Shown in pieces: positions 34,482 through 38,606 of a DNA stretch of 64,000 nt. The number at the start of each line of letters is the position of its first letter. Positions within the stretch are counted from its first letter, which is position 1. The stretch spans positions 62,001 to 126,000 of the forward strand of contig JANBQC010000006.1 in NCBI GenBank assembly GCA_027576995.1, written 5' to 3'. A model generated the notes under the pieces. The model did no database searches. It was not told the origin of the DNA and was given only the letters and a program-made list of their open reading frames with translations. The position numbers and the translations under genes are program-made. This stretch comes from Dimargaris cristalligena. Taxonomy: Eukaryota; Kickxellomycota; Dimargaritomycetes; Dimargaritales; Dimargaritaceae.

Positions 34482-35577
34482 ATGTTTGACAGCGCGCTCC
34501 CTGTCAAACCCAAGCTAAGTTTATCTTCTCGGAAACGCCGCCTTGAACACACCGAACAACTTGTAGTAGACACGCCCGACTCCTCCCCAAAGTCCCTCTC
34601 CTCTTATGAGATTGATGAATTAGCCCAATTATTCGATGAATTTATCGACGAATCGGGCCCGTACAAAAAGAATCGACTGGTAAGTGGTTTACACTATACC
34701 AACAATGGTTGCACACCTGCCTGTCTTTGCCAGCGCTAGTGCCTTCCCTGTCTGGATCGGAGAGACCATAAATCCAATAACCTATAAGCCCATCCATTAT
34801 CTTTATCTCTACATGGCCAATTTTCCTGGCCCCACTCTCCATTAGATTCCCGAAACAAGCGAGTCGATCGTTGCAATTCCCAATGCATCACCTCCTCGTA
34901 TATTGCCCCCATCAACCGCTTCAGCCACACCTAACAGCACCCGTCCGGCGACTAAATCCAACCCTGACACGTCAATACCACTCACCAAGGCCACCATTGA
35001 AATCGACGGTTCTCCTCATGCCCACCAGCCATCCCCTCCCCCAATTACCCGCGCCCCACCACCGAAAGTGCCCCGCAAGTTAGGTAGTCTAGAAAACGTA
35101 TTTACCGAGGACCAAGTTCGATCATGGTCCGCCGCCCGAATCCACGCCTGGAATATTCGACACACCAACCCAGAGGCCTATTATTACCGTTTTGTGGACC
35201 CAACCGAAGGGCAATTCAACGGAGGGTTCAAGCGATCGGACCATGATGCTTTTATGGCCCGACTGGCGGAATGGCGGGAAAGTGGCTACAAAATTGGCTC
35301 GGCCTGGGGCTTATTTAGCAAAGGCATTCCCCATAAGGCCGGCTATATGTGCAGCTCCTATTACCGCAAATTATTGGAGCAACGGCGATTAACAGACGAA
35401 GCCTACGGTTGGGTCGATGGCAAATTAGTCATGGTCAACAAGCAGCGCCAGGCCGGATCTGGTCCTACCCCAGAGTCTCGCCTCAGTGGCCTCTGGGATT
35501 CCCCCGAGGTTAAGCTAGTGGAGGACAACGTCAACCGGTGGCTCAAACAGTATCACAATACAGCCATATCTAGGTAA
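34482..35577 (+). CDS. Myb/SANT-like domain protein, possibly the N-terminal part of the MT-A70 gene
   Basis: Two exons, 34482-34679 and 34846-35577, join in phase 0 (GTAAGT donor, acceptor CATTAG), giving 309 aa if translation stops at 35577. The start context CTACCATGT is good. Residues 1-160 are disordered, with Ser/Pro/Thr runs and a basic SRKRRLEH near the start. About residues 160-260 are folded: WSAARIHAWNIRH, then a three-helix pattern with spaced aromatic residues (LAEWRESGYK, AWGLFSKGIPHKAGYMCSSYYRKLLEQ) like a Myb/SANT DNA-binding unit. The C-terminus ends AISR followed by TAA. The last codons contain CTAG followed by GTAATT, a possible donor at 35574. If used, the stop falls in an intron and the frame continues into the MT-A70 exon at 35958 without a phase change, giving one 870-aa protein. 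Both readings are open. The Myb-like call is by pattern. Confidence 0.75.
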
Positions 35578-35957
35578 TTCTACCATTTTTTTATGCATCG
35601 ATAATCCTACATCCACCGATTGTCATACTGCGCCTGGTTGAGAATCTCTAGAGATTGNNNNNNNNNNCCCGATCACTGTATACCCAAACGATAGTGCCCC
35701 TAAAGCAAGCCCCACCCGTAATTCCACATTGGCATTGTCTGCCTCACTAGCGTCCCCCAAATCTAGCAAAGTCAAGTAAGTCGTTTTCCAACACTCCGGA
35801 GTCGGCATTTGATTACAGCTGTATTGCTAGGTATTACTCTGTGCTAATGTAATGGTTGCAAATTTTATAGTAGGCTAATTTAGATGATGATGTTTTTTTT
35901 TCCAATCCCCTGCCCCCTTGCTATTCTGACGAACCTTCACCGGTAAATGTGATCTAG
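35578..35957 (+). other. candidate intron or spacer between Myb-like and MT-A70 regions
   Basis: Between the Myb-like frame and the MT-A70 exon. It holds a 10-N gap and, near its end, a pyrimidine-rich tract (about 35888-35930), a CTGAC branch-like motif near 35925 and an acceptor ending GATCTAG at 35957. These 3' splice signals are strong. The matching 5' site (GTAATT at 35574) is weaker than the usual GTAAGT. Confidence 0.55.
35658..35667. other. assembly gap (10 N)
   Basis: Ten N bases, an assembly gap of nominal length. The left flank is a perfect 14-bp palindrome at 35643-35656 (AATCTCTAGAGATT), which may have caused the break. True distance across the gap is unknown, so unseen sequence could lie here. 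Confidence 0.98.
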
Positions 35958-37644
35958 ACATCTACCTAAAGTGGTGGCGGTTTCATCGGAGGCTGAATCA
36001 ATTGACAAGGGCATGCTGGCTACCTCCCCTGCTAATACGGCAACTGCCACGAATAGTGGCTCTAGTTCCAGTGCTAACAATACCAGTGCCAAATTCAAGG
36101 CACCTTACACCATTCCCAATTTGGAATACAAGAACCGGATGCGGCAGCTGGCCGAAATTCGCGCCAATCAGGCCAAACAAGCAAACACAGCATCACCGTC
36201 TCGGCCACCTGCTCCATTAGCAACTACTAATGCCAAACCTACCACTTCTACCCCAGTAAGGACTGCAACTTTGACTGAACTCCGGGTGACAAAGGTCCCG
36301 ACTGCCGCCATGGTAGACCCAGACTCCGATTTTGCACTGCCCCCCACTACCATTCGAACCAGGTCGACCCAGATTGATTTATCCCGATTTTGGAAAGATG
36401 TCAAAGCCCCCGAGGCACCCATCCCGGAGCCTATTATGGCCCGGATTCCAAACCCCATTCCTAACACCTGGGCCAAGTGTATTCAAACATTGGAAACCCA
36501 GTTCGAGACTATACCCGAACCCACCGAGTACATTTGGATGGAAGTAAAACAAATGGAAGACTTGGACTTGCCCGCAATCGGACAAGCGTGCCTTGAAAAC
36601 TTGGATCTGGCAACTGCCTCGACCGATAAATCAATCGAAACCCCGGATAGCACCCCGGTACTCGAGTTTGAGGGTATCGTTGTCGACCCCCCGTGGACTT
36701 ATCTTTACGACGAAGAATCCTATTTGGCGTGTTTGCCCCCACCCGAAGAACCACCGAACCTATCCTCTCCTCCCCCAGGAGGCATGGGGGTCACCGTGGA
36801 CAAGGTGGCATCCATTCTAGAAAAGATTCTCCCGAGTTTGCCGCGCGGCATGGTGTTTCTGTGGACCCACAAAACGATGCTCCCCCAAGTGGTCGAAATG
36901 ATGCAGGCCTTGGACTGCCGCTACGTGGAAAACCTCATTTGGTTCAAAAAGGCCCTCCACCACGGCCCCCTCAACCGACCGTCTCCCTATTTCCGGTCCG
37001 CCAAGGAAACCCTCCTGCTCTTTAAGAAAGGGGACGGATTCGATATTCGGCACCAACGGTCAGCGGATGTTATTATCGATTTCGCTCGGCCCGTCCGAGA
37101 CTGGATTTACCACGACTGGACCGAACCCAAACCAGATGCGGTTTACGATATGATAGAAACCCTATTGCCCAATGCGGCCTACGACTGTGCCCTGGGGCGT
37201 GGTAAACTTTTAGAACTATGGAGTAGCTACGATGGCCCGCGGCGGCCTGGCTGGGTCTATGTGCGCGAACCGAAATGCGGGCTAGAACACCTGGAAGACC
37301 CCTACCGTTTGGTGCCCTCTCTCGCCGCAGCCATGGCTGGTACCGCCTCGAGAATAACGGAAGTTAATGGCACCCACGAACCTCCATCGACTCATCCCAA
37401 TCGCGAGCCCGTGGCGCCCGGGCAGTCTCTGCAATACCACCAGCAAAAATGGCGGAAATCGCGGCTCATCCGGAAAACGTGCCAAACTATTCGGGCTGGA
37501 TCGGCCCCATCGATGGTGATCGATGCCGAACACGAGGCATGGCTTATCCCAAGACGATTGGCTCTGTTTAAGGAATTGACCATGGTACTACCTAGTGAGG
37601 AAGCCGATGAAGTGTGTGCCGAAATTATCACTCAGATTCAATGA
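35958..37644 (+). CDS. MT-A70 family adenine methyltransferase
   Basis: S-adenosylmethionine-dependent N6-adenine methyltransferase of the MT-A70 family, which includes RNA m6A writers (METTL3/Ime4, METTL4) and the DNA 6mA enzymes MTA1/MTA9. The catalytic motif DPPW is intact at 36685-36696 (GIVVDPPWTY). Family blocks follow: RGMVFLWTHKTMLPQVVEMM, YVENLIWFKKAL, the RSAKETLLLFKKG loop, ADVIIDFARPVRDW, KPDAVYDMIETLLP, and LELWSSYDGPRRPGWVYV, where METTL3 has a grP-x-x-gW element. The N-terminal 200 residues are disordered and Thr/Pro-rich. The frame has no ATG until 36014 (MLATS) but is open back to a clear splice acceptor at 35957, so either translation starts at 36014 or this is the last exon of the upstream Myb-like gene. 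RNA or DNA as substrate cannot be told from the sequence. Intact DPPW argues against the inactive METTL14/MTA9 class. Confidence 0.9.
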
Positions 37645-38084: not shown

Positions 38085-38606
38085 CTACTTGCGCATCAGT
38101 AGGTACACATGCTCACCCACGATAATATTCTGCAAGTGACGGAACTCGCCTTCCAATTTCATGAGCAAACCACCAAACGAAACGAACACGGCCACCTTGG
38201 TTCCGGACGCATCGTCGTACCGGTAAACTTTACCGTACATGACGTATTCGTAATCGTCGGCCAGGGTCCGTTCCGTCTGGTTCGGACGCCACGTATCTTG
38301 TTTAACGGACGGACCCCGTCCACTCCCGCCGTTTGGGCCACCACCGCCATTGCCCGCGGCGGAAGCGGAAGAAGCGGTTGCAGCGTCAGCGGCCCCATCG
38401 AGCGAAAGCGACGAAGCGAGCACCAACGAGAATTTAGTGCCGATTTCCAATGGGTAGAGCTCGATGTTGTAGTCGAGGATCAGTTCCATGCCGTAATTCT
38501 CACTGCGCGCGTTCAGGCGGGACACCCGGTCGAAATGCTTGCCATCCTTGTCGATGTCGTTACAGTCGAAAATGTCGGAAAATAGGATATTATCTTTCTT
38601 CTCCAT
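38085..38606 (-). CDS. RPB8: RNA polymerases I, II and III shared subunit RPB8 (ABC14.5)
   Basis: OB-fold subunit common to the three nuclear RNA polymerases. Single exon of 173 aa from ATG at 38606. The N-terminal half matches the family: ILFSDIFDCNDIDKDGKHFDRVSRLNARSENYGMELILDYNIELYPLEIG then FSLVLASSLSLDG. The C-terminal half has DDYEYVMYGKVYRYDD, VFVSFGGLLMKLEG and VYLLMRK. Human RPB8 is 150 aa; the difference is a Gly/Ser/Ala-rich insert at about residues 72-100 (runs of GGGG and ASSAS) placed in the loop between the two halves, which is flexible in known structures. The gene is minus strand and convergent with the MT-A70 gene; its upstream flank has a G run on the plus strand, making a pyrimidine-rich leader. 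Confidence 0.97.
   Translation of the reverse strand: MEKKDNILFSDIFDCNDIDKDGKHFDRVSRLNARSENYGMELILDYNIELYPLEIGTKFSLVLASSLSLDGAADAATASSASAAGNGGGGPNGGSGRGPSVKQDTWRPNQTERTLADDYEYVMYGKVYRYDDASGTKVAVFVSFGGLLMKLEGEFRHLQNIIVGEHVYLLMRK

What the first reader, a model, noticed from the sequence alone, without database searches (positions are those of the whole stretch)
34482..37644. Possible fusion of a Myb/SANT-like domain to an MT-A70 adenine methyltransferase
The Myb-like frame ends with CTAG followed by GTAATT, and its stop codon lies inside that donor. The MT-A70 frame has no ATG for its first 43 nt but is open back to a strong acceptor (pyrimidine tract, CTGAC, then CTAG at 35957). Splicing 35574-35957 completes one Arg codon and keeps frame, giving an 870-aa protein with the Myb-like unit at about 195-245 and DPPW at 552-555. 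In ciliates the DNA 6mA complex MTA1c uses separate proteins, with the DNA-binding homeobox-like p1 apart from MTA1; a single polypeptide joining both roles would be notable. The fusion is my inference; two tandem genes remain possible.
Basis: partly seen in the sequence, partly recalled or inferred. Interest (0 to 1): 0.78.

Follow-up and report, generated by a model that had tools for sequence, protein, structure and literature searches.

The report
Myb-MT-A70 fusion protein in fungi
This fungal gene very probably makes one protein that joins a DNA-binding domain to a relative of the DNA adenine-methylation machinery, and relatives in several early-branching fungal groups share the same layout plus a short motif that looks able to grip the DNA-replication clamp.

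Summary
The fusion is real at family level. A search with the Myb-like half alone returned 23 proteins; 21 also carry the MT-A70 half, from Dimargaritales, Mortierellaceae, Mucorales, Bifiguratus and one unnamed source. The exact splice in this window stays open: a 10-N gap and a possible extra exon lie inside the proposed intron. Correction: the methyltransferase half is not MTA1 but AMT6/7 (MTA9)-type; 45 family rows form one clade (SH-aLRT 98) next to AMT6/7 rows. The same genome carries separate AMT1, conventional AMT6/7, METTL3 and METTL14 genes. The family keeps DPPW (44 of 44 rows with letters; 1 of 19 other AMT6/7 rows), but not several AMT1 SAM-pocket residues. New here: a PIP-box-like QxxLxxF[FW] motif before the MT-A70 domain in 44 of 46 family proteins and 0 of 19 other AMT6/7 proteins. 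Best reading: a DNA- and PCNA-tethered AMT6/7-type partner of AMT1 that helps restore 6mA after replication. Architecture and kinship are shown by comparison; partner, PCNA binding and function are inferred.

The parts
34482..34679 (+). exon 1, residues 1-66, poorly conserved N-terminus
   Evidence: ATG start, in-frame GTAAGT donor at 34680
34680..34845 (+). intron 1 (166 nt, GTAAGT...TTAG)
34846..35573 (+). exon 2, residues 67-308, holds the Myb/SANT-like domain
   Evidence: open frame; conserved block from about residue 145 to its end
35098..35562 (+). conserved Myb/SANT-like region, residues 151-305 (core 189-243 at 35212-35376)
   Evidence: homologues; AF2 pLDDT mostly above 85; Myb-fold chains among VIA matches; PF00249 in relatives
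35652..35775 (+). possible extra exon interrupted by the N gap (acceptor CTCTAG 35646-35651, donor GTAAGT 35776-35781)
   Evidence: codon score favourable, homologue alignment not; unproven
35658..35667 (.). assembly gap, 10 N
35958..37644 (+). last exon: completes the Arg codon at residue 309 and runs to the stop; linker, PIP-like motif, MT-A70 domain, C-terminal tail
36370..36393 (+). PIP-box-like motif QIDLSRFW (residues 447-454)
   Evidence: 44 of 46 family proteins, 0 of 19 other AMT6/7; conservation profile
36424..37278 (+). AMT6/7-type MT-A70 domain (residues about 465-749), DPPW at 36685-36696
   Evidence: PF05063; MTA9 best among solved structures; tree

Best explanation
One gene encodes a fusion protein of a fungal family: an N-terminal Myb/SANT-like DNA-binding domain, a poorly conserved linker with a PCNA-binding (PIP-box-like) motif at its end, and an MT-A70 domain of the AMT6/7 (MTA9) type. 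Most likely mechanism: the MT-A70 domain pairs with the separate AMT1 catalytic subunit, as MTA9 pairs with MTA1, while the Myb domain and the PIP-like motif hold that heterodimer on newly replicated DNA so that hemimethylated ApT sites are re-methylated. Shown by computation: the architecture in the family, its AMT6/7 kinship, conserved DPPW, conserved PIP-like motif, and AMT1, conventional AMT6/7 and PCNA genes in this genome. Inferred: that the halves are spliced together in this very window, that DNA and PCNA are bound, that AMT1 is the partner, and that the role is maintenance of 6mA.
For: Fusion: 21 of 23 hits of the Myb-half search carry the MT-A70 half. Over all three searches 64 non-window proteins were kept (P0024 and P0025 set aside): 40 have the Myb WGxFS and the MT-A70 [RK]HQR strings, P0016 has Myb and DPPW but ends early, and of the 23 without the WGxFS string 4 fall in the fused clade (P0060 and P0063 begin inside the Myb region, P0064 matches it at 4e-16 with a piece missing, P0065 begins after it). 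Family: profile E 2.1e-24 and 2.6e-23 to MTA9-type chains, 5.5e-11 to MTA1, 0.08 to METTL3; Foldseek top 7yi8_A MTA9 2.4e-12; 45 rows one clade, SH-aLRT 98, with AMT6/7 apart from the three outgroup rows at 99. Myb: PF00249 above cut-off in the relatives P0024 and P0025; Myb-fold chains among VIA matches. PIP-like motif 44 of 46 against 0 of 19, at the end of a variable linker. Own genome: AMT1, METTL14, METTL3, AMT6/7, PCNA. Precedent: an AMT1-AMT6 complex recruited by PCNA in Tetrahymena, as told by a review (PMC13297926 section 29; original paper not seen).
Confidence: 0.5

Rival explanations
1. The fusion is itself an active, DNA-targeted 6mA writer: the Myb domain brings it to chosen sites and its own DPPW centre transfers the methyl group, perhaps de novo.
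For: DPPW in 44 of 44 family rows with letters against 1 of 19 other AMT6/7 rows; AMT1 K334 and E353 equivalents kept in 43 of 45 and 44 of 45 rows (gaps make up the rest), R357 mostly K (38 of 45).
Against: Other AMT1 residues that PMC9174199 names as critical or strongly contributing are not kept: N360 stays N in 1 of 45 rows, N359 in 2 of 45, N370 in 1 of 45. The equivalent of the critical D182 could not be placed with certainty. The own METTL14 orthologue also keeps DPPW, so the motif alone does not show activity.
Confidence: 0.2
2. An AMT6/7-type partner of AMT1 targeted by the Myb domain to promoters or open chromatin, with no replication link; the QxxLxxF[FW] block is only a structural element in front of the MT-A70 domain.
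For: The motif sits at the edge of a conserved block that continues towards the MT-A70 domain; W in place of F/Y is not the strict PIP form; fungal 6mA clusters near transcription starts (review PMC13297926, passages).
Against: Strict QxxLxxFF followed by basic residues in 13 of 46 proteins, and no such motif in 19 other AMT6/7 proteins.
Confidence: 0.22
3. In this window the two frames are separate tandem genes, or the gene is broken at the N gap.
For: No contiguous DNA across the 10-N gap; a stop codon lies inside the donor; an ATG is available at 36013.
Confidence: 0.05
4. An RNA m6A factor rather than a DNA 6mA factor.
For: The MT-A70 fold is shared with METTL3 and METTL14.
Against: METTL3 and METTL14 are separate genes here; the domain groups with AMT6/7, not with them; the added domain is Myb-like.
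Confidence: 0.03

Closest known systems
AMT6/7 family (MTA9, MTA9-B; non-catalytic partner of AMT1/MTA1)
   Same: MT-A70 domain best matched by MTA9-type solved chains; RHQR, YVEN and ETLLP-type blocks shared; tree places them together
   Different: fused N-terminal Myb/SANT-like domain, PIP-like motif, DPPW kept; a conventional AMT6/7 gene is present as well (contig C335, DPPL)
MTA1c p1 (homeobox-like in ciliates; called Myb-like P1 in Rhizopus by a review)
   Same: a DNA-binding component of the same pathway; Myb and homeobox domains are both small helix-turn-helix folds (recalled)
   Different: here the DNA-binding domain is on the MT-A70 chain; no match to a p1 chain was found; fungal P1 sequence not available to compare
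Tetrahymena AMT6 complex recruited by PCNA (review PMC13297926)
   Same: AMT6/7-type subunit and a putative PCNA link
   Different: the PCNA link here is a motif only; whether Tetrahymena AMT6 has a PIP box was not checked
DNMT1 (5mC maintenance enzyme with a PCNA-binding region; review figure legend)
   Same: by analogy: methylation machinery with a PCNA-binding part on the same chain
   Different: unrelated enzyme family, different base
Myb/U-box-like protein on contig C464 (L005) and Mucor P0025
   Same: the same YYYRF...WGxFS...GYxCSxYYR Myb-like region, 45% identity for C464
   Different: no MT-A70 hit; U-box-like C-terminus in L005 (below the Pfam cut-off)

Membership tests
MT-A70 superfamily (PF05063) | Pfam model above curated cut-off | tested here: met
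   26.2 bits against 23.9
AMT6/7 (MTA9) | groups with AMT6/7 rather than AMT1, METTL3, METTL14 | tested here: met
   profile scores; tree, 99 for fused plus AMT6/7 against the three own-genome outgroup rows; the AMT6/7 rows are not one side of a branch there, and AMT2/5 and METTL4 were not in the tree
AMT6/7 (MTA9) | eroded catalytic motif (NALW in Tetrahymena MTA9, PMC9852454; DPPL in the 10 named fungal AMT6/7 proteins here) | tested here: not met
   DPPW in 44 of 44 family rows with letters; so filed as a related clade or variant, not a plain AMT6/7
AMT1 (MTA1) | SAM-pocket residues N360, N370, E371 | tested here: not met
   kept in 1, 1 and 0 of 45 rows
AMT1 (MTA1) | closest match to MTA1 chains | tested here: not met
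   MTA9 4.9e-15 against MTA1 2.5e-6; the genome's AMT1 is on C218
AMT2/5 | C-terminal ZZ zinc finger (PMC12695648, passages) | tested here: not met
   only MT-A70 hit P0002 at E up to 1; phylogenetic test not done
Myb/SANT domain | PF00249 match | tested here: inconclusive
   none in the window protein at E up to 1; 15.6 bits, below the cut-off of 24.4, in P0018; 31.1 and 33.4 in the relatives P0024 and P0025
Myb/SANT domain | Myb helix-turn-helix fold | tested here: inconclusive
PIP-box proteins | QxxLxxF[FY] consensus (recalled) with PCNA binding | tested here: inconclusive
   QIDLSRFW in the window, strict form in 13 of 46 family proteins; binding not testable here
MTA1c p1 | sequence similarity to p1 | tested here: inconclusive
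   profile A4 hit no p1 chain among PDB sequences at E up to 10; p1 sequence not in hand

The most novel reading that the evidence does not exclude
Early-diverging fungi evolved a dedicated replication-coupled 6mA maintenance subunit: a second, DPPW-bearing AMT6/7 paralogue carrying its own DNA-binding (Myb) domain and a PCNA-binding motif on one chain, a counterpart for adenine methylation of DNMT1's targeting half. It would date back at least to the common ancestor of Dimargaritales, Mortierellomycota and Mucoromycotina.
Probability: 0.38. Interest if true: 0.82.

Novelty: new variant of a known kind. Interest (0 to 1): 0.64.

Why it matters
[quoted passage not shown] A conserved protein that joins an AMT6/7-type domain to a DNA-binding domain and a PCNA-type motif gives a direct, single-gene test of that question in fungi. 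It also bears on the published scheme of six MT-A70 families (PMC12695648): by the tree these fungi have a further, distinct DPPW-bearing branch next to AMT6/7.

Tried and rejected

Literature: ten searches ran. None of the listings or passages I saw describes this fusion or a PIP motif in an MT-A70 protein. Papers seen: PMC13297926 passages and sections 28 and 29; PMC11258239 passages and section 12; PMC12695648, PMC9852454, PMC9174199 and PMC8298701 passages only. The two Rhizopus microsporus 6mA papers (PMC12019607, PMC12638772) and the 2019 AMT paper (PMC7145601) are not held and were not read; any of them could already describe Mucorales members, for instance as Mta9. Some database entries are already named 'MT-A70-domain-containing' or 'Myb-like domain-containing' protein.

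Limits of the tree: one AMT1, one METTL3 and one METTL14 outgroup row, quick search, several long branches flagged, and the fork between the fused clade and the AMT6/7 groups is open. Whether Mucorales also have a conventional AMT6/7 was not tested. Phylum and order names beyond those in the hit names are recalled.

Full report
What is in the window. The window is part of contig C6 of a 27.1-Mb, 779-contig genome. Its closest relatives found are Dimargaritales fungi, up to 68% identical over the Myb-like region. The next gene downstream, on the other strand, is RPB8 (38085-38606, PF03870).

Is it one gene? The Myb-like part alone (residues 148-312 of the model) was used to search 5.8 billion proteins: 23 hits among 402 candidates. 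Of these 23, 21 also contain the DPPW-bearing MT-A70 half and 2 do not (P0024, P0025). The converse search with the MT-A70 part gave 31 hits among 2137 candidates, 15 with and 16 without the Myb signature. A profile search (38 hits, the 7990 candidates sharing most words scored) added Umbelopsis, Endogone, Blakeslea, Chlamydoabsidia and more Mortierellaceae; Calcarisporiella and Rhizopus stolonifer came. Of the 64 non-window proteins gathered (P0003-P0068 less P0024 and P0025), 40 show both signature strings, 1 (P0016) shows Myb and DPPW without the [RK]HQR end, and 23 have MT-A70 without the Myb string. Four of those 23 (P0060, P0063, P0064, P0065) fall inside the fused clade: two begin inside the Myb region, P0064 matches it at 4e-16 with a piece missing, and P0065 begins after it. 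Most of these are database entries called 'hypothetical protein', so each alone is weak, but the same joint product in many genera is hard to explain by annotation error. In this window the exact junction remains open: the gap and a GTAAGT donor at 35776 leave room for a small extra exon, whose coding support is mixed.

What the C-terminal half is. Against solved structures the single sequence prefers MTA9 (4.9e-15) to MTA1 (2.5e-6); the family profile gives MTA9-type chains 2.1e-24 and 2.6e-23, MTA1 5.5e-11, METTL3 0.08. Foldseek ranks 7yi8_A (MTA9) first at 2.4e-12, though MTA1, METTL14 and METTL3 chains follow within three orders of magnitude. In a 68-row tree 45 family rows are one clade (SH-aLRT 98), and together with 20 AMT6/7 rows they stand apart from the own AMT1, METTL3 and METTL14 at 99. 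It is a quick tree with flagged long branches, an open fork between the fused clade and the AMT6/7 groups, and no AMT2/5 or METTL4. The own genome holds AMT1 (C218, 5.5e-72 to MTA1), METTL14 (C433), METTL3 (C40) and a conventional AMT6/7 with DPPL (C335), so the fusion is an additional gene, not a replacement.

Catalysis. DPPW is kept in 44 of 44 family rows with letters (P0028 has a gap there) and in 1 of 19 other AMT6/7 rows, the Acanthamoeba protein P0035. AMT1 residues reported to hold SAM (PMC9174199 and PMC9852454, passages) fare unevenly: K334 and E353 equivalents are kept, R357 is mostly K (38 of 45), N359, N360, N370 and E371 are kept in 2, 1, 1 and 0 of 45 rows. The D182 equivalent could not be placed with certainty. 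DPPW in the own METTL14 orthologue warns that the motif alone does not prove activity. I favour a partner role, with activity open.

A PCNA-type motif. The proteins show QxxLxxF[FW] about 80-130 residues before DPPW: QIDLSRFW here, QTGLSLFW in most Mortierellaceae members, QxxLSRFF or similar in Mucorales, Umbelopsis, Endogone and Bifiguratus. It is present in 44 of 46 family proteins, in the strict form in 13, and in 0 of 19 other AMT6/7 proteins; shuffled family proteins show it in 15 of 920. The two exceptions are P0011, whose predicted protein lacks the block, and P0030, with SSIFSPFYK. The motif sits where a variable linker gives way to conserved sequence, which is also what a structural element would do. 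PCNA is encoded (C142). The PIP-box consensus is recalled, not from a call. [quoted passage not shown]

How it most likely works. AMT1 supplies catalysis; the fusion's MT-A70 domain pairs with it as MTA9 does; the Myb domain and the PIP-like motif place the pair on newly made DNA. Steps shown: architecture in the family, kinship, conserved motifs, co-existing genes. Steps inferred: junction in this window, pairing, DNA and PCNA binding, maintenance role.

Novelty. The parts are known; their joint occurrence on one conserved, DPPW-bearing AMT6/7-like chain was not described in what ten searches and the readable papers showed. Three relevant papers could not be read, so prior description is not excluded. 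I rate it a new variant of a known kind.

Noticed in passing
   Followed up: partly
L005 481-2049 (-), contig C464: A Myb-like region 45% identical to the window's, followed by a U-box-like C-terminus; no MT-A70 hit in that open frame.
   Followed up: partly
L006, contig C119: A third copy of the Myb-like region, apparently split by introns.
   Followed up: partly
L010 1944-2861 (-), contig C433: The METTL14 orthologue of this fungus keeps DPPW, where human METTL14 has EPPL (recalled).
   Followed up: no
P0036, P0040, P0041 (Dipsacomyces, Coemansia): Conventional AMT6/7 proteins listed with cytidine deaminase domains (PF00383, PF08211) on one chain; fusion or merged gene models.
   Followed up: no
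P0030 residue 91, P0064 residue 166: N-terminal CxxC...HxxxC pattern resembling a ubiquitin-binding zinc finger (recalled) in the Calcarisporiella and Endogone members; no Pfam family above cut-off.
   Followed up: partly
P0035: The Acanthamoeba AMT6/7-type protein also keeps DPPW but has no WGxFS Myb string or PIP-like motif.
   Followed up: no
window 38085-38606 (-): RNA polymerase subunit RPB8 gene next door.
   Followed up: yes
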